The position numbers and the translations under genes are program-made. A stretch of 18,825 bases of DNA from assembly GCA_002710495.1 (NCBI GenBank), contig PAKE01000015.1:33170-51994 (forward strand), written 5' to 3'. Each line of letters starts with the position of its first letter. Positions within the stretch are counted from its first letter, which is position 1. This document shows positions 2 to 17,442 of this stretch, in pieces. The notes under the pieces were generated by a model, which worked only from the letters and a program-made list of their open reading frames with translations, ran no database searches and was not told the origin of the DNA. This stretch comes from Flavobacteriales bacterium. GTDB lineage: Bacteria; Bacteroidota; Bacteroidia; Flavobacteriales; BACL11.

Positions 2-349
2 TTTGATTTCTCTAATTACACCAACAAAACTGTTGCTCTCAATTGTAGTGCCGATGCAATTGTACCAATGTGGGCTTTTATGATAGTTACGTCTTATTTA
101 AATTCCGTTAATGCAGACATACATTTTGGCGGAAAAGAGGATGTCTTTCAGCAAATATTCACTGCTAATATTGATACTATTGATATCACAGAATTTGAAA
201 ACAAAAAAGTGATTGTAAAAGGATGTGGGAATATTCCTCTAAGTGAAAGTTTGTATATTGCTATTACACAAAAATTGCAAAATAGTGTAAGTAGTTTAAT
301 GTTTGGGGAGGCTTGTTCGGCTGTTCCTGTATTAAAAAACAAAAAATGA
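2..349 (+). CDS. DUF2480 family protein, C-terminal part (5' end outside window)
   Basis: This is the C-terminal 115 residues of a protein whose start lies left of the window; the reading frame is open from base 2. The sequence fits my memory of the DUF2480 family of small Bacteroidota proteins: a block around 'ALNCSADAIVPMW', then 'VIVKGCGN', then a 'LMFGEACSAVPV' ending. The function of the family is not known to me. Three cysteines (in NCSAD, KGCG and EACS) sit in these conserved blocks and could bind metal or take part in redox chemistry, but that is inference. Its TGA stop overlaps the ATG of the next gene (ATGA), so the two are probably one transcript with coupled translation. Confidence is good for the family and low for any role. 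Confidence 0.8.
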   Translation, partial: FDFSNYTNKTVALNCSADAIVPMWAFMIVTSYLNSVNADIHFGGKEDVFQQIFTANIDTIDITEFENKKVIVKGCGNIPLSESLYIAITQKLQNSVSSLMFGEACSAVPVLKNKK

Positions 350-1086
350 ATCCAAAAATTTTAGAAGTAAATAAAAATATACAATCCTATAAAGAGGAAA
401 TTGTAAATCACCCATTATACAACCAATTGAATACCATTGAGGATGTACAGAAACTCATGGAAATTCATGTGTATGCTGTTTGGGATTTCATGTCCTTATT
501 AAAAGGATTACAAATTGAATTGACTTGTACTAAAATTCCCTGGAAACCCATTGGAGAAAATAAAACAAGAAGATTAATAAACTCTATTGTTCTGGAAGAG
601 GAAAGCGATGTCGATTCAGAAGGAAATCCTTCTTCACACTATGAAATGTACTTAGATGCTATGAAAGAATGTGGAGCTAATACATCTGAAATTGAAAGTT
701 TTGTAAATAGCGTTTCAGGTATAAACCTACCTAAAATAAATACAGCTGTTGACTTATTTTTAGCAACTACTTTTGATGTTTTAAATAGTGGGGAGGCTCA
801 TAAAATTGCAGCAGCCTTTACTTTTGGGCGTGAAGATTTAATACCAGATATGTTTACTGCTATTGTAAATGATTTGAGTAAAGAACATAAACTTGATAAG
901 TTTGTTTACTATCTAGAAAGACACATAGAATTAGATGGAGGAGAGCATGGTCCTTTGGCGTTGGAACTCATTAGTAATTTATGTGGAGAGGACGAGCAAA
1001 AATGGGAAGAAGTAGAAGAAACTGCTATTGCCTGTTTAGTCGCCCGTAAAGAATTGTGGGATCTAGTTTTAAAAGAACTTAATTAA
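346..1086 (+). CDS. DUF3050 family protein, heme-oxygenase-like fold predicted
   Basis: A protein of 246 residues matching the DUF3050 family as I remember it. The N-terminus holds 'HPLYNQL', then 'HVYAVWDFMSLLKGLQ' (about 41-56), 'TCTKIPW' (60-66) and an acidic 'VLEEESDVDSEG' (82-93). Near the C-terminus are 'FTFGREDLIPDMF' (158-170) and 'ERHIELDGGEHGP' (191-203). Known of the family: uncharacterised, all-helical, related to the heme-oxygenase-like fold. Seen here: the helix with H193-x3-D197-x3-H201, plus acidic and His residues further upstream (E84-E86, H98, E163), resembles the metal-binding layout of heme-oxygenase-like di-iron oxidases. A metal-dependent oxidase role is therefore an inference. 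The start chosen is the ATG in the ATGA overlap with the preceding DUF2480 gene. An in-frame ATG 33 bases earlier lies deep inside that gene and is less likely. The gene ends one base from the convergent rluF. Confidence 0.85.
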   Translation: MNPKILEVNKNIQSYKEEIVNHPLYNQLNTIEDVQKLMEIHVYAVWDFMSLLKGLQIELTCTKIPWKPIGENKTRRLINSIVLEEESDVDSEGNPSSHYEMYLDAMKECGANTSEIESFVNSVSGINLPKINTAVDLFLATTFDVLNSGEAHKIAAAFTFGREDLIPDMFTAIVNDLSKEHKLDKFVYYLERHIELDGGEHGPLALELISNLCGEDEQKWEEVEETAIACLVARKELWDLVLKELN

Positions 1087-8860: not shown

Positions 8861-10375
8861 ATGGACAGAGAACTTTCCGAACAAGAAATAGTAAGAAGAG
8901 AAAGCTTACAAAAACTGATAGATCTAGGTATAAATCCATACCCTGCAGATACGTTTGATGTAAATAACACATCTAAAAATATAAAAAAGAGTTATGTTGA
9001 TGGTGATAAAACCGAAGTAATAATAGCTGGAAGATTGATGAGTAGAAGAGTTATGGGTAAGGCGTCTTTTGCTGAAATACAAGATAGTGATGGAAGAATT
9101 CAAATTTATGTAAATAGAGATGAAGTCTGTGAAGGAGAGGATAAGACTATGTATAATACTGTATTTAAAAAACTTTTGGATATTGGTGATATTATTGGAA
9201 TAAAAGGAACTGTTTTCACTACAAAAGTTGGTGAAATTTCAATAAAGGTTAAAAATCTAACCGTTCTTACAAAGACTTTAAGGCCACTACCTCTGCCAAA
9301 AACAGATGTAGATGGGTCGGTTCATGATGCGTTTACAGATCCTGAAAAAAGATATAGACAAAGATACGTAGATTTGGTGGTCAACCCTGATGTGAAAGAT
9401 GTGTTTATCAAGAGAACGCAACTTACAAATTCAATGAGATCTTTCTTAAATGAAAAAGGATATTTAGAAGTAGAAACTCCAATTTTACAACCTCTTTATG
9501 GTGGTGCTGCGGCAAGGCCATTTAAAACACATCATAATACTTTAGATATGGAATTGTATCTAAGAATTGCAAACGAACTATATTTAAAACGATTAGTTGT
9601 TGGTGGATTTGATGGGGTTTATGAGTTTTCTAAAGATTTTAGAAATGAAGGAATGAGTAGATTTCATAATCCTGAATTTACACAAATGGAGCTTTATGTT
9701 GCTTATAAAGATTATTCTTGGATGATGGATTTAGTAGAAGAAATGGTAGAGAAAATTGCTATGGATTTACATGGTACAACTGAAGTAAAAGTGGGTGAAA
9801 ATATCATCAATTTTCAAAGACCTTGGAAAAGATATACAATGTATGAAGCAATTGAGCATTTTACAGGTATTGATATCTCAGAAATGAGTGAAGAAATAAT
9901 GTCTGAAACCGCTAAGGAATTAGGAGTTAAGGTTGATAAAAGTATGGGTAGAGGAAAGTTAATTGATGAAATTTTTGGTGAAAAATGTGAAAGAGAATTA
10001 ATTCAACCAACATTTATAACTGATTACCCTGTGGAGATGTCTCCGTTAGCTAAAAAACACAGAAAACACGACGGTTTAGTGGAGCGTTTTGAAGCTATTT
10101 GCAATGGGAAAGAAATTTGCAATGCATTTTCTGAACTTAATGACCCAATCGACCAAAGAGCAAGATTTGAAGAGCAATTAGAACTTGGGAAAAGGGGGGA
10201 TGAAGAAGCGATGGTTCTTGATGAAGATTTCTTAAGAGCTGTTGAATATGGAATGCCTCCAACTGCTGGTTTGGGAATTGGAATTGATCGATTAAGTATG
10301 ATTATGACAAACTCTAACTCTATTCAGGATGTGCTTTTCTTCCCACAAATGAAATCTGAAAATAAAAATGATTAA
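8861..10375 (+). CDS. lysS: Lysyl-tRNA synthetase, class II
   Basis: A 504-residue class II lysyl-tRNA synthetase, which charges tRNA-Lys with lysine in the cytoplasm. The N-terminal OB-fold anticodon-binding domain covers about 53-135 ('[19 protein letters not shown]'). 'RYRQRYVDL' (164-172) marks the entry to the catalytic domain, motif 2 is 'FRNEG' (260-264) followed by '[11 protein letters not shown]' (269-279), and motif 3 is 'GLGIGIDRL' (470-478). '[13 protein letters not shown]' (417-429) is typical of bacterial LysS. Length is normal, and the start fits the promoter box 14 bases upstream. A 61-base gap separates it from the next plus-strand gene, with no clear terminator, so read-through is possible. 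Confidence 0.98.
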
Positions 10376-10436
10376 TCTTTAATAGTTTAGATAACTTGAA
10401 AATCTATTAGTACGATTTAATAAAAAAACCATCCAA

Positions 10437-11141
10437 ATGGACAATCAGTTTAAAAAAGAATTAGAAAAAACTAATAAATTTGTTAGTTTGGTTTACGATA
10501 AAATGAATTTATTTCCAAATCCTAATAAGGAAATTAATGATATTACTGCTCAAGGACTTACGTCTAATAAAGTAAAGCACGGATCAAGATATTGTCCATG
10601 TTTTGTTGTGATTGGAGAAACCAAGGAAGAGAAAAAAAAATTAAACGATAGAGTGTGTCCATGTAAACCCGCTTTAGAAAAAGAGATTCCAGAAGATGGT
10701 ATATGTCATTGTGGTATATTTTGCACTTCTAGTTATATAGATAATTATGTTAAAGCAGATCTCTCTATGGTTGAACATAAGTTAAATTTAAATTCTGAAA
10801 ATCTAAATCCTTTATTTAAAAAAGATGAAATAAATTCAGTAGAGTTAGTTGATTTGTTAGATGGTAGAAATAGTAGATTAATAAATTTTATTTTAATTGA
10901 TGTAAGGGAAATAATTGAAAATGATACTAAAATGATAATTGGAATGGATTATCTGATTCCTACATCTGATTTAGGTAATGGTTTAGATAGTATCTCTGAT
11001 AAAAAGGAGGAAAATATAGTGGTTCATTGTCATTCTGGATCTCGTTCTGCTAAGGTTCAGGAAATTATGAAAAGCATAGGGTTTAAAACAGTTGTAAATT
11101 TAAGTGGTGGAATCGTTTCCTATGGAGGTGAAACAAAATAA
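10437..11141 (+). CDS. Fusion of ferredoxin-thioredoxin reductase-like iron-sulfur domain and rhodanese
   Basis: A 234-residue two-domain protein. Residues about 10-105 carry the cysteine pattern of the ferredoxin-thioredoxin reductase catalytic chain: 'YCPCF' (C53, C55), 'CPCKPA' (C74, C76) and 'GICHCGIFC' (C90, C92). In the plant and cyanobacterial enzyme these six cysteines hold a [4Fe-4S] cluster and an adjacent redox disulfide; by analogy C53, C74, C76 and C90 are ligands and C55/C92 the disulfide. The gaps differ from the classic enzyme (here 18 and 13 residues, against 16 and 8 as I remember it), and there is an extra C96. Residues about 130-234 form a rhodanese domain with 'LIDVRE' (153-158) and active loop 'CHSGSRS' (198-204), C198 being the sulfur-carrying cysteine. 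There is no signal peptide, so it is cytoplasmic. No FTR variable chain, ferredoxin or thioredoxin gene is nearby. It lies between lysS and gpsA and overlaps gpsA. A sulfur-transfer or persulfide-reducing role is inference. Confidence 0.8.
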   Translation: MDNQFKKELEKTNKFVSLVYDKMNLFPNPNKEINDITAQGLTSNKVKHGSRYCPCFVVIGETKEEKKKLNDRVCPCKPALEKEIPEDGICHCGIFCTSSYIDNYVKADLSMVEHKLNLNSENLNPLFKKDEINSVELVDLLDGRNSRLINFILIDVREIIENDTKMIIGMDYLIPTSDLGNGLDSISDKKEENIVVHCHSGSRSAKVQEIMKSIGFKTVVNLSGGIVSYGGETK

Positions 11142-12126
11142 AAAAAATATAGGAGTCGTTGGTGGAGGTAGTTGGGCCACAGCTATTGTGAAAATGCTTT
11201 GCGAAAATGTTAACTCTATAAATTGGTGGATGAGAAATAAAGACTCTATCAGTCATATTGAAACTTACGGACACAACCCAGATTACATCTCAGATGCAGA
11301 ACTAAAAAAGGAAAAATTAAATATAAGTTGCGATATAAATAGTGTAATTGAAAATTCTGATTTAATTGTTCTTGCTGTTCCTTCTGCATTTCTAAAATCT
11401 ACTTTAAATAATTTAAATGTTTCTCTAAAAGAAAAAATTATTGTTTCTGCAATTAAAGGGATTGTTCCTGAAAACAATACTATTGTTGGAGAATTTATTC
11501 ATAATCAATATGAGGTTCCTTATAAAAATATTGGAGTGCTAACTGGTCCTTGTCATGCGGAAGAAGTTGCCCTAGAGAGGCTTTCTTATTTAACAGTTGC
11601 CTGTAGTGATATAGAAAAAGCAGAGTTTTTTGCAAATTCTATTTCGGGAAGATATATTAAAACTAATGTTTCAGATGATATTTATGGAACAGAGTATTCG
11701 TCTGTTCTGAAAAATGTAGTAGCTCTAGCTTCTGGAATCTGTCATGGTTTAGGTTATGGAGATAATTTTCAGGCAGTATTAATTTCTAATGCAATTAGAG
11801 AAATAAAACTCTTTGTTGATAGGGTTCATCCGATTAATAGAGATATAAAAGAATCTGCTTATTTGGGAGATTTATTAGTAACCGCTTATTCTCAATTTAG
11901 TAGAAATAGAACTTTTGGAGAAATGATTGGAAGGGGGTATAGTGTAAACTCTGCTCAACTACAATTAAAAATGATTGCAGAAGGATATTATGCAGTAAAA
12001 TGTATTTCGGAAATAAATGAAAAACTAAATGTAGAGATGCCAATTACTCAGGCGGTTTATAATATTTTATATAACAGAAAATCTGTCCGAAAAGAAATAG
12101 CTGATTTAACTGAAAAATTAAATTAA
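11122..12126 (+). CDS. gpsA: Glycerol-3-phosphate dehydrogenase [NAD(P)+]
   Basis: A 334-residue GpsA, which reduces dihydroxyacetone phosphate to sn-glycerol-3-phosphate for phospholipid synthesis. The Rossmann motif is 'GVVGGGSWATAI' (11-22), 'VLAVPSAFL' (83-91) and 'SAIKGI' (109-114) are typical, and 'GPCHAEEVA' (142-150) marks the substrate region. The catalytic lysine is K197 in 'EYSSVLKNVVALASG', and 'SRNRTFGEMIGRG' (260-272) is the expected C-domain block. The start chosen gives a normal short lead before the Rossmann motif and overlaps the upstream fusion gene by 20 bases; an ATG 18 bases earlier and a GTG 6 bases later are in frame. It converges with scoB, and the two stop codons overlap. 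Confidence 0.95.
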   Translation: MEVKQNKKNIGVVGGGSWATAIVKMLCENVNSINWWMRNKDSISHIETYGHNPDYISDAELKKEKLNISCDINSVIENSDLIVLAVPSAFLKSTLNNLNVSLKEKIIVSAIKGIVPENNTIVGEFIHNQYEVPYKNIGVLTGPCHAEEVALERLSYLTVACSDIEKAEFFANSISGRYIKTNVSDDIYGTEYSSVLKNVVALASGICHGLGYGDNFQAVLISNAIREIKLFVDRVHPINRDIKESAYLGDLLVTAYSQFSRNRTFGEMIGRGYSVNSAQLQLKMIAEGYYAVKCISEINEKLNVEMPITQAVYNILYNRKSVRKEIADLTEKLN

Positions 12127-15816: not shown

Positions 15817-16285
15817 TTTCTGTTGTTAAATAAAATGAAATATCTGAAATGCCATCTAATTTTTCTAATTCTGTAGAGACGTTATCTCTCATGGCTAATT
15901 CTAAAGAAAAGGAGTGTAGTCCGTTTTGGTACGTTTTTGGTGATAATATTGTAGTTGAAAATTCTTTAATGTCGCTTTTACCCCTACCTATCCATTTACC
16001 ATTATCCTCTGCTAATAATAATTCAATTGTGTTGGTAGAAATAATGTTTTCTTTGTAAGAGTGATGTAGAAAAAATATAATGTTTTGATACTTATAAGAA
16101 GTATTGTGTCGGATTGAAATATTAGACATTCTAACTTGTGTAGAGTCTTTTGTCGTTATGTCAAATTTTATAATTTGTTGTGAGTTCCATTTAGAACCAA
16201 GGAAAGAATGGTGGTGTGTTTTTTCACCCTTACATGAAAAAAAAAAGATTAAAATAATTGGGTATATGAAAATGTTTTTTTTCAT
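15806..16285 (-). CDS. gldH: Gliding motility lipoprotein GldH
   Basis: A 159-residue lipoprotein. The signal peptide ends in 'FFFSC', so C18 is the lipidated cysteine. The mature part fits GldH as I remember it: 'NSQQIIKFDITTKDSTQ', 'ISIRHNTSYKYQNIIFF', 'DNGKWIGRGKSDIKE' and a C-terminal 'ISDISFYL'. GldH is one of the Gld lipoproteins needed for gliding in Flavobacterium johnsoniae, together with the type IX secretion and gliding machinery; its exact role is not settled. The start overlaps the ricT stop as ATGA. A run of ten T bases on the coding strand falls in the signal peptide. The match is by pattern only, since the protein is small and diverges quickly. Confidence 0.82.
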   Translation of the reverse strand: MKKNIFIYPIILIFFFSCKGEKTHHHSFLGSKWNSQQIIKFDITTKDSTQVRMSNISIRHNTSYKYQNIIFFLHHSYKENIISTNTIELLLAEDNGKWIGRGKSDIKEFSTTILSPKTYQNGLHSFSLELAMRDNVSTELEKLDGISDISFYLTTENED

Positions 16286-17442
16286 TCTTTGTTGTTTCCT
16301 TTCTGGTATTTATTTTTTTTCTTATAGTTATTCTTGTTTTTGAATTTATTTTTTGATTTTATTTTTTTGATATCTTGTTTTTTATCAAACCTATTAATAT
16401 TATCTTGGCCAACAACCGTACTATAATCTACTTTTGAAACTTCTTTTTCTACTACAAATTCTTCTAATGACCTTGGAAGTTTTTGTTTTTTATTATCTTC
16501 TATTATTTGAAGTACTTGTTTTAATGAAAGTTCAAAGATTCCTGGTTCGTTAGACTTATAAACGTATTGTAGTTTTTTCTTAAATACGTCAATCTTTATT
16601 TGTTTAGCTTCTCCTTTTTTGGTTTTCAAAATTTGTTTTTGTTTTGGGAAATATTTTAAGCTGTCTAAATAAGAATCAAGCTCAAAATTTAAACAACATT
16701 TTAACTTTCCACATTGTCCTGAAATTTTTTGGGGATTTATGGATAGTTGTTGATATCTAGCTGAGGATGTTGAAACTGCTGGGAAATCAACCATCCAAGT
16801 GGTGCAACACAATTCTCTACCACAACTTCCAATACCGCCAACCATTGCGGCTTCTTGTCTAACTCCAATTTGCTTCATCTCAACTCTAATCCCAAAGGTT
16901 CTAGAATATTCTTTTATTAACTCTCTAAAATCTACTCGTTTTTCAGCTGTATAATAAAAAACAGCTTTTGATTTATCTCCCTGAAACTCTACATCAACTA
17001 GCTTCATTTCAAGTTTATGGTTGTTAATTATTTCTTTTGCTTTTTTAAGAGTTGGTTGTTCTAAATCAATCGCTGATTCGTATTTTGATAAATCTGTATC
17101 TTTTGCGAGTCGATATATTTTTTTTAGTGGGTTGGTTTTTATGTTTATTTTTTTTCTTTTTATTTGATAATAAACAATTTCTCCAATCAATGTAATTTTA
17201 CCAATATCATGACCCGAATTTCCTTCAACAGCAACAAAATCTCCTTCAGAAATACTTAGATTATCTTTATTCTCAAAATATTCCTTTCTGTTCATTTTAA
17301 ACTGAATCTCCACTAAATTTTTATTAGAATTGCTTTTTGCGTCTTCTACATTTGCAAGCCAGTTAAAAACTGAACTTGCTGCTGACCCCCTTTTTTCAGA
17401 AACCTTACATGTACTACATCCTCCTCCTGTTCCGCATCCCAT
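16282..17442 (-). CDS. ricT: PSP1-domain iron-sulfur protein RicT (YaaT-like)
   Basis: A 386-residue PSP1-domain protein of the RicT/YaaT family. In Bacillus subtilis RicT works with RicA and RicF in a complex that carries [4Fe-4S] clusters and affects mRNA processing by RNase Y. Here the N-terminus begins 'MGCGTGGGCSTC' (C3, C9, C12), a Bacteroidota feature. The PSP1 core has 'GSCGRELCCTTWM' (206-217) and 'SGQCGKLKCCLNFE' (241-254), with C207, C212, C213, C244, C249 and C250. The last 35 or so residues are almost all Lys, Asn and Gln, probably disordered and perhaps RNA-binding. Neither ricA nor ricF is in the window. It is 11 bases downstream of holB, the usual neighbour of yaaT in many bacteria, and overlaps gldH. 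Confidence 0.88.
   Translation of the reverse strand: MGCGTGGGCSTCKVSEKRGSAASSVFNWLANVEDAKSNSNKNLVEIQFKMNRKEYFENKDNLSISEGDFVAVEGNSGHDIGKITLIGEIVYYQIKRKKINIKTNPLKKIYRLAKDTDLSKYESAIDLEQPTLKKAKEIINNHKLEMKLVDVEFQGDKSKAVFYYTAEKRVDFRELIKEYSRTFGIRVEMKQIGVRQEAAMVGGIGSCGRELCCTTWMVDFPAVSTSSARYQQLSINPQKISGQCGKLKCCLNFELDSYLDSLKYFPKQKQILKTKKGEAKQIKIDVFKKKLQYVYKSNEPGIFELSLKQVLQIIEDNKKQKLPRSLEEFVVEKEVSKVDYSTVVGQDNINRFDKKQDIKKIKSKNKFKNKNNYKKKNKYQKGNNKE

What the first reader, a model, noticed from the sequence alone, without database searches (positions are those of the whole stretch)
10437..11141. Ferredoxin-thioredoxin reductase-like domain fused to a rhodanese
The N-terminal half has the CPC, CPC, CHC cysteine set that in ferredoxin-thioredoxin reductase binds a [4Fe-4S] cluster next to a redox disulfide. 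The C-terminal half is a rhodanese with an intact CHSGSRS loop. I do not know of a characterised enzyme with this architecture. The enzyme's usual partners (variable chain, photosynthetic ferredoxin) are not in the window, and a flavobacterium is not photosynthetic. The cysteine spacing is stretched (18 and 13) and a seventh cysteine, C96, is present. One reading is that the cluster/disulfide centre gives two electrons to reduce the persulfide on the rhodanese cysteine, or releases sulfide, within one chain. This could be a sulfur-trafficking or persulfide-reducing enzyme.
Basis: partly seen in the sequence, partly recalled or inferred. Interest (0 to 1): 0.78.

Follow-up and report, generated by a model that had tools for sequence, protein, structure and literature searches.

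The report
Iron-sulfur disulfide reductase fused to rhodanese
This gene joins a predicted iron-sulfur electron-delivering domain to a sulfur-carrying domain in one protein; relatives occur in many sulfur-metabolising marine bacteria, I found no described function, and it may turn ferredoxin electrons into released sulfide.

Summary
In detail: window 10437-11141 (+) encodes an intact 234-residue protein, a ferredoxin-thioredoxin-reductase catalytic domain followed by a rhodanese. It is not a freak. All 120 listed best homologues carry both domains; all seven predicted active cysteines are invariant in 121 aligned sequences; 87 of 298 sampled Campylobacterota genomes hold a fusion-sized frame. 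In the window's own bacterial family the gene sits just after lysS; fifteen relatives carry a lone rhodanese in that slot and six have nothing between lysS and gpsA. The 'stretched' spacing and 'extra' C96 are clade norms. Two clues tie the domains together: the residue after the rhodanese cysteine is never Lys/Arg in 220 fusions but is in 165 of 167 close stand-alone relatives (only about three independent switches), and the FTR domain accompanies SoxY in 67 of 68 SoxY-bearing Campylobacterota genomes (kinship uncorrected, no control). The own genome shows no FTR variable chain but has korAB beside a ferredoxin. Best explanation: a ferredoxin-driven persulfide reductase, working like NADH-dependent CoADR-rhodanese enzymes; chemistry unproven (0.5). 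Ten literature searches gave no paper on this architecture. New variant of a known kind.

The parts
10437..11141 (+). FTR-catalytic-domain/rhodanese fusion gene, 234 aa
   Evidence: relatives
10458..10769 (+). FeThRed_B domain (residues 8-111); C53 10593-10595, C55 10599-10601, C74 10656-10658, C76 10662-10664, C90 10704-10706, C92 10710-10712, C96 10722-10724. Cluster ligands C53/C74/C76/C90 and redox pair C55/C92 by homology to plant-type FTR (assignment recalled)
10752..10820 (+). variable linker, residues 106-128 (0-60% identity of 34 representatives to the window protein over 106-125)
   Evidence: pLDDT 74 at residues 101-110 and 82 at 111-120
10866..11123 (+). rhodanese domain (Pfam residues 144-229; fold matches about 128-234); active loop C198-H-S-G-S-R-S, C198 at 11028-11030
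8861..10375 (+). lysS, the constant upstream neighbour in this bacterial family (fusion starts 61 bases after its stop)
   Evidence: PF00152; next to the fusion, to lone rhodaneses and to empty sites
11122..12126 (+). gpsA; ATG at 11122 overlaps the fusion's end (a longer GTG frame starts at 11104); probably cotranscribed, no terminator-like site found in 10300-11300

Best explanation
A ferredoxin-dependent persulfide reductase. Inferred cycle: the rhodanese cysteine C198 takes sulfane sulfur (from polysulfide, thiosulfate or a low-molecular persulfide) and becomes C198-S-SH. Reduced ferredoxin, made by the 2-oxoacid:ferredoxin oxidoreductase, feeds the [4Fe-4S] cluster of the tethered FTR domain one electron at a time. 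C55 attacks the persulfide (or the disulfide formed with C198) and C92, next to the cluster, resolves it, so that HS- leaves and both cysteines are reset. It would work like the NADH-dependent CoADR-rhodanese (Npsr) enzymes, with ferredoxin and an iron-sulfur/disulfide centre in place of NADH, FAD and CoA. Shown here: the two domains, their invariant cysteines, fold matches, cis linkage in two phyla, a fusion-specific rhodanese loop, a ferredoxin source in the genome. Inferred: the cluster, every chemical step, the substrate.
For: Both domains match at E <= 0.001 in 69 of 69 members scanned; C53, C55, C74, C76, C90, C92 and C198 invariant in 121 of 121. Rhodanese loop C-x4-R-S present in 220 of 221 unique FTR-bearing long frames; the one without, L177, has no rhodanese. 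Residue after C198: H 179, L 28, F 8, Y 5, never K/R, in 220 fusions, against K/R in 19 of 19 stand-alone rhodaneses of the same clade and in 165 of 167 close stand-alone hits, as if the loop were adapted to the tethered partner. Separate FTR and rhodanese genes lie back to back in one genome (L182). 67 of 68 SoxY-bearing Campylobacterota genomes have the FTR domain, 58 of 68 a fusion-sized frame. Own genome: korAB-type oxidoreductase with an adjacent divergent 105-aa dicluster ferredoxin. Functional analogue: Npsr, where a rhodanese cysteine is the first sulfur acceptor before reduction to H2S (PMC7969121, passages). In one selenoprotein FTR read two predicted Sec replace exactly the two redox cysteines (PMC2398784, passages).
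Against: I found no biochemical evidence for any member. Gene neighbours are not recognisable sulfur genes in the window, and the commonest Campylobacterota neighbour is an unknown lipoprotein-like gene (44 of 76 loci; one example has no Pfam match). The K/R switch has only about three independent events (3 of 3 pairs, p 0.25; 2 of 3 in the larger quick tree, p 0.5). The SoxY association is confounded by kinship and lifestyle, and no control family was run; 34 of 101 FTR genomes lack SoxY. Fifteen family relatives keep the rhodanese without FTR, so the FTR part is dispensable there. Two of the three fusion-bearing family genomes, G003 and G014, showed no full-length thioredoxin reductase (G014 a 45-position fragment match), which would suit a thioredoxin-reducing role, though both assemblies are fragmented. 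C55/C92-C198 distance could not be measured.
Confidence: 0.5

Rival explanations
1. The FTR domain is an ordinary ferredoxin:disulfide reductase for thioredoxin or other proteins; the rhodanese is a docking or sulfur-sensing add-on that tunes it but is not its substrate.
For: FTR reduces thioredoxins, and FTRC homologues of deep-rooted bacteria are thought to serve thioredoxin too (PMC9025218, passages). Stand-alone FTR genes of the same clade occur in Campylobacterota beside or instead of the fusion: 14 of 101 FTR genomes have no fusion-sized frame. Fusion-bearing G003 and G014 showed no full-length thioredoxin reductase (fragmented assemblies).
Against: Own genome has a thioredoxin reductase over the curated cut-off (389.8 bits). 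The rhodanese catalytic loop is kept in 220 of 220 fusions and, in the one close pair tested, is under stronger purifying selection than the FTR part (dN/dS 0.05 against 0.26), unlike a passive add-on.
Confidence: 0.22
2. A sulfur-delivery enzyme: the rhodanese hands persulfide sulfur to a biosynthetic acceptor, and the FTR domain only keeps C198 reduced or repairs it after oxidation.
For: Most single-domain rhodaneses with a CRxGxR loop are sulfurtransferases (recalled); relatives at the same locus exist without FTR; NCBIfam's best rhodanese-side matches are MoeZ/MoeB-type sulfurtransferase domains, all far below cut-off.
Against: No sulfur-carrier or desulfurase gene recognised among the ten window proteins scanned or, by eye, among the 30 commonest neighbour clusters. 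The loop residue that is Lys/Arg in nearly all stand-alone members is His, Leu, Phe or Tyr in all 220 fusions.
Confidence: 0.17
3. Recent horizontal transfer of the complete gene from a Campylobacterota neighbour, with the function it has there.
For: Within its own family only 3 of 52 genomes have PF02943, while 101 of 298 Campylobacterota genomes do. My first reading.
Against: Full-length tree splits 15 flavobacterial-type and metagenomic rows from 34 campylobacterotal rows (26 from genome loci, 8 metagenomic rows labelled by similarity) at 100/99; the rhodanese half groups with the lysS-linked lone rhodaneses at 100/100. The FTR half alone gives the same split only at 95/42. An old exchange in either direction stays possible.
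Confidence: 0.08
4. Artefact: two neighbouring genes joined by a sequencing or assembly error.
For: Lone rhodanese genes sit at the same locus in 15 relatives.
Against: Same fusion in other assemblies at 95% and 62% identity and in all 120 listed homologues; none of 52 family genomes, many incomplete, shows a separate FTR gene.
Confidence: 0.01

Closest known systems
Ferredoxin:thioredoxin reductase catalytic chain (FtrB/FTRC; 1dj7, 2pu9)
   Different: no variable chain found (0 of 12 genomes), longer CPC-CHC spacing (13, against 8 in 1dj7), extra C96, C-terminal rhodanese
Glutaredoxin/ferredoxin disulfide reductase fusion of Desulfotalea psychrophila (7pwe) and the chain named rubredoxin, 4tpu
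   Different: partner is glutaredoxin (before the FTR part in 7pwe, from the match position) or rubredoxin; here a C-terminal rhodanese. Known to me only from PDB titles and names
CoADR-RHD / NADH-dependent persulfide reductase Npsr (3icr, 3ict, 3nta, 6pfz)
   Different: reductase part is an FAD/NADH/CoA flavoprotein, no FTR domain; here an iron-sulfur-type domain
FtrB family double-selenoprotein (NF041072)
   Same: nearest NCBIfam model (57.5 bits)
   Different: far below its cut-off of 160; cysteines, not Sec; 121-position model, too short for a rhodanese
Persulfide dioxygenase-rhodanese fusion (5ve3)
   Different: oxidative chemistry and a different partner domain (from its title; recalled)

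Membership tests
FTR catalytic-chain family (PF02943) | profile score over the curated cut-off | tested here: met
   96.6 against 22 bits
FTR catalytic-chain family (PF02943) | CPC, CPC, CxC six-cysteine set | tested here: met
   aligned with 1dj7, 4tpu, 7pwe; invariant in 121 of 121
FTR catalytic-chain family (PF02943) | [4Fe-4S] cluster next to a redox disulfide | not testable with these tools
   needs spectroscopy
Plant/cyanobacterial heterodimeric FTR | variable chain (PF02941) present | tested here: not met
   0 of 12 genomes incl. own; control rings in Synechococcus elongatus only. Own genome is 81.6% complete
Plant/cyanobacterial heterodimeric FTR | reduces thioredoxin with ferredoxin | not testable with these tools
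   enzyme assay needed
Rhodanese superfamily (PF00581) | profile score and fold | tested here: met
Rhodanese superfamily (PF00581) | catalytic Cys in a six-residue loop (C-x4-R), as in sulfurtransferases rather than Cdc25-like C-x5-R | tested here: met
   CHSGSR; same pattern in 220 of 220 fusions with a rhodanese; the loop rule is recalled
Rhodanese superfamily (PF00581) | sulfurtransferase activity | not testable with these tools
   assay needed
CoADR-RHD / Npsr | FAD/NAD-binding pyridine-nucleotide disulfide oxidoreductase domain | tested here: not met
   only FeThRed_B and Rhodanese match in Pfam at E <= 0.01
FtrB double-selenoprotein NF041072 | score over equivalog cut-off; Sec at the redox positions | tested here: not met
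   57.5 against 160; codons at C55 and C92 are TGT
Anti-phage defence proteins (PADLOC) | any profile match | tested here: not met
   0 families at E <= 0.001

The most novel reading that the evidence does not exclude
A previously undescribed enzyme class in which a ferredoxin-fed [4Fe-4S]/disulfide centre directly reduces the persulfide on a tethered rhodanese and releases sulfide, giving sulfur-oxidising Campylobacterota and some marine flavobacteria a direct route from the ferredoxin pool to sulfane sulfur; the rhodanese active loop is retuned (no Lys/Arg after the catalytic Cys) whenever the reductase is in cis.
Probability: 0.42. Interest if true: 0.8.

Novelty: new variant of a known kind. 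Interest (0 to 1): 0.6.

Why it matters
Ferredoxin-driven disulfide reduction is textbook for photosynthetic redox control. If the same centre reduces persulfides here, ferredoxin and sulfane-sulfur pools would be coupled in one small soluble protein, without NADH or flavin, in bacteria prominent at vents and redoxclines (habitat recalled). The family is widespread (fusion-sized frame in 87 of 298 sampled Campylobacterota genomes), occurs under record titles of genera with cultured members (culture recalled), and makes clean predictions: a loop residue that switches with domain architecture, and a natural series of fusion, lone rhodanese and empty site at one locus in one bacterial family.

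Tried and rejected
Recent transfer from Campylobacterota: my working idea after (still in notebook entry 1); rejected as stated because the trees split the groups deeply. An old exchange remains possible.

Mosaic gene: the window's FTR half is only 50-59% identical to 34 representatives, near-copies aside, while its rhodanese half is 93% identical to P0003, which suggested domain replacement. The AU tests do not reject one clade of flavobacterial-type FTR halves (p 0.56 and 0.30), so this is not shown; faster change of the FTR half suffices.

Operon function: no functional neighbour recognised. lysS and gpsA are housekeeping genes. In Campylobacterota the nearest neighbours vary: an unknown lipoprotein-like gene, DoxX, DsbD with a lone rhodanese, argG-like and glnK-amtB-like genes (argG, glnK and amtB read by eye).

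Selenocysteine: stops flagged in five lone-rhodanese matches (four TGA, one TAA); the lone rhodanese frames themselves are open, so the stops lie outside them.

Cysteine distances: the model (pLDDT 91.2, pTM 0.79) was not readable in the Python box, so C55/C92 to C198 was not measured. The pTM may hint at a preferred domain arrangement but shows none.

Rooting: of three outgroup rhodaneses one (MoeB part, very long branch) fell inside the lone flavobacterial rhodaneses, so the rooted tree is not trusted; there the split flavobacterial-type/Campylobacterota has only 88/75 and 89/86.

Bacteroidota FTRs: 15 of 395 genomes in the phylum sample, own included, have PF02943; the 13 others over cut-off (L022-L034) are stand-alone, a different subfamily with CAC in place of the second CPC and no C96; G142 is a weak match under the cut-off.

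Literature: searches gave no paper on an FTR-rhodanese fusion. The library is open-licence PMC only. Seen as passages: PMC2398784, PMC7969121, PMC10045233, PMC11237513, PMC7278568, PMC9025218. All other papers: listing only. FTR ligand numbering, rhodanese loop rules and habitats are recalled.

Counting caveats: one search selected sequences by the six-cysteine pattern, so it cannot test those cysteines (searches do, on the best hits only). One row (L177, no rhodanese) was left out of the 220. One search dropped 4 of 80 loci where my gene picker lost the fusion frame. The 167 are the first 47 of 120 listed (cut chosen by me) plus all 120 listed. Of the 47, four have CRTANRS, missed by my pattern and counted by eye as Arg; the two exceptions with His (P0149, P0152) may be fragments of fusions. 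The 167 overlap the 19 by at least P0122 and probably P0242. The 73 more distant hits (70 Arg, 1 Asn, 2 without loop) are not in the 167. In one search I left out 5 of 13 Bacteroidota stand-alone rows. Tree labels: of nine 'flavobacterial' fusions only the window and P0017 (NIOZ-UU86) have a known source; the other seven, and eight 'campylobacterotal' metagenome rows, are labelled by similarity.

Full report
What is there. Window 10437-11141 (+) is an intact 234-codon gene. Pfam finds FeThRed_B over residues 8-111 (96.6 bits, cut-off 22) and Rhodanese over 144-229 (38.2 bits, cut-off 22.2) and nothing else at E <= 0.01. That C53/C74/C76/C90 hold the cluster and C55/C92 form the redox pair is recalled from the FTR literature, not tested. 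The gene starts 61 bases after lysS and overlaps gpsA; no terminator-like site was found in 10300-11300.

Reality of the fusion. It recurs in the assembly of a near relative (L036, 95%, Flavobacteriales isolate SI037S4_bin7) and, 62% identical, in a second genus directly behind lysS (L037, NIOZ-UU86). All 120 listed best protein hits (of 1494 at E <= 0.001) carry both Pfam domains (both motifs), and 69 of 69 members scanned match both. In 121 aligned sequences C53, C55, C74, C76, C90, C92 and C198 are invariant; C96 is Cys in 118, residue 91 is His in 108, Tyr in 12 and Asn in 1. Against L036 dN/dS is 0.17, lower in the rhodanese (0.05) than in the FTR part (0.26), and like that of lysS (0.18) and gpsA (0.14).

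Where it lives. A scan of GTDB species genomes found 474 stretches encoding a relative; of the 80 kept, 2 are Flavobacteriales, 77 bear titles of Campylobacterota groups (Sulfurovum, Hydrogenimonas, Nitratifractor and others) and one, L051, is titled only 'bacterium'. In a sample of 298 genomes of the phylum of L099's genome (a Sulfurovaceae, hence Campylobacterota), 101 have PF02943 and 87 of these a frame of 239-334 residues, the size of the fusion; 14 have only shorter or other frames. Fusion was not checked domain by domain for all 87. In the window's own family 3 of 52 genomes have PF02943. In a sample of 395 genomes of its phylum 15, own included, have it; the 13 others over cut-off are stand-alone proteins of a different subfamily.

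A domain series at one locus. In 15 of 15 loci with the best lone-rhodanese matches of the family, the gene directly next to lysS (lysS confirmed by tblastn, 61-86% identical) is a lone 113-121-residue rhodanese, 40-50% identical to the window's C-terminal half, with no FTR domain. In six other genomes (four of the same genus) lysS is followed straight by gpsA. So the slot behind lysS holds fusion, lone rhodanese or nothing. In trees, 15 flavobacterial-type and unnamed metagenomic fusions form one side of a branch against 34 campylobacterotal fusions (100/99); with the FTR half alone the same split has only 95/42. The rhodanese halves of those 15 and the 15 lone lysS-linked rhodaneses form one side at 100/100, and the lone ones are one clade (100/99); within it the metagenomic fusions group with the lone rhodaneses (99/90) rather than with the flavobacterial fusions, though the opposite grouping is not rejected (AU p 0.351). 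Lone rhodaneses lying among fusions suggest one old fusion and one loss of the FTR part, but the root is not secure and gain in place is not excluded. This overturned my first idea of a recent transfer from Campylobacterota. In one campylobacterotal genome the two domains are separate back-to-back genes (L182), and in several others a lone FTR gene abuts or overlaps the fusion.

A mark of cooperation. In 220 unique fusions the residue after the catalytic rhodanese cysteine is His (179), Leu (28), Phe (8) or Tyr (5), never Lys or Arg; in 19 of 19 stand-alone rhodaneses of the same clade it is Lys or Arg. Two further searches gave 167 close stand-alone hits: 120 of 120 flavobacterial-type have Lys, and 45 of 47 campylobacterotal-type have Arg; the two exceptions carry His and may be cut-off fusions. 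On the tree both traits change three times and 3 of 3 independent pairs agree (p 0.25, the least that three pairs allow). In a larger, quicker tree there are four changes of architecture and three of the residue, and 2 of 3 pairs agree with one showing no difference (p 0.5). So the pattern is strong in counts and weak in independent events.

Electron source and partners. The own genome has one PF02943 match, no match to the FTR variable chain (0 of 12 genomes), and a thioredoxin reductase over cut-off. Of the other two fusion-bearing family genomes, G003 and G014, neither showed a full-length thioredoxin reductase; both are in many contigs, so this is a lead for the thioredoxin rival rather than a result. 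The own genome has a korA/korB-type 2-oxoacid:ferredoxin oxidoreductase with a divergent neighbour coding for a 105-residue dicluster ferredoxin, also in G003. That FTRC homologues occur without the variable chain in various bacteria is known (PMC9025218, passages). In Campylobacterota, 67 of 68 genomes with SoxY also have the FTR domain, against 34 of 230 without SoxY; for fusion-sized frames 58 of 68 against 29 of 230. No control family was run and kinship is not corrected, so this only says that the gene follows the SoxY-bearing part of the phylum.

Mechanism. I commit to a ferredoxin-dependent persulfide reductase at 0.5. In Npsr a rhodanese cysteine takes the sulfur first and a reductase domain in the same chain reduces it to H2S (PMC7969121, passages). 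Here the reductase is an FTR domain, whose known substrates are sulfur-sulfur bonds (recalled). Cis linkage, full conservation of both active sites and a loop that changes with linkage argue that the rhodanese is the FTR domain's substrate rather than a passenger. Rivals are a thioredoxin reductase with a sensing domain (0.22) and a sulfur-delivery enzyme with a built-in reducer (0.17).

Novelty. An FTR-type domain fused to a glutaredoxin is solved (7pwe, title), and rhodaneses fused to persulfide reductases are known; this pairing is annotated by databases ('ferredoxin-thioredoxin reductase catalytic subunit/rhodanese-related sulfurtransferase') but I found no paper on it in ten searches of an open-licence library. 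Sulfurovum indicum has two rhodanese-like genes raised about 2.8-fold during sulfur oxidation (PMC10045233, passages); whether either is this fusion was not determined.

Noticed in passing
L166, L167, L168, L170, L182 (about 5.3-6.8 kb in each): In a group of Campylobacterota a lone FTR gene and the FTR-rhodanese fusion (or, in L182, a lone rhodanese) sit divergently beside glnK- and/or amtB-like genes (read by eye); in L168 the fusion is split into two frames.
   Followed up: partly
L177:5697-6371, L178:5238-5882: 215-225-residue proteins with an FTR domain (60-63 bits) and a C-terminal part of about 100 residues without Pfam match; a third architecture.
   Followed up: partly
L038-L113, directly upstream of the fusion: A 104-267-residue lipoprotein-like gene (one example scanned, no Pfam match) directly precedes the fusion in 44 of 76 readable loci, from overlap to 51 bases away; DoxX and small cysteine-rich genes often lie before it.
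   Followed up: partly
L056, L058, L084, L093, L094, L181: DsbD-type thiol:disulfide transporter genes (Pfam checked in L093 and L181 only) lie near the fusion, with a lone rhodanese of the same clade between them in L056, L058 and L093.
   Followed up: partly
window 10437-10751: The window's FTR half is unusually diverged: 50-59% identical to 34 representatives, including P0003 whose rhodanese half is 93% identical.
   Followed up: yes
L016, L017, L018, L037: A secreted M28 peptidase-like gene with PDZ domain (scanned in L037; similar starts in the others) lies behind the lysS-linked rhodanese or fusion in place of gpsA.
   Followed up: no
window 16282-17442 (-): RicT/YaaT-family protein (NF041131, 259.9 bits) with a Cys-rich N-terminus, between a DNA polymerase III delta'-like gene (read by eye) and gldH.
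   Followed up: no
window 313-1086 (+): DUF3050 protein (310.7 bits) that also matches the Haem_oxygenas_2 iron-containing redox enzyme family (35.7 bits); function unknown.
   Followed up: no
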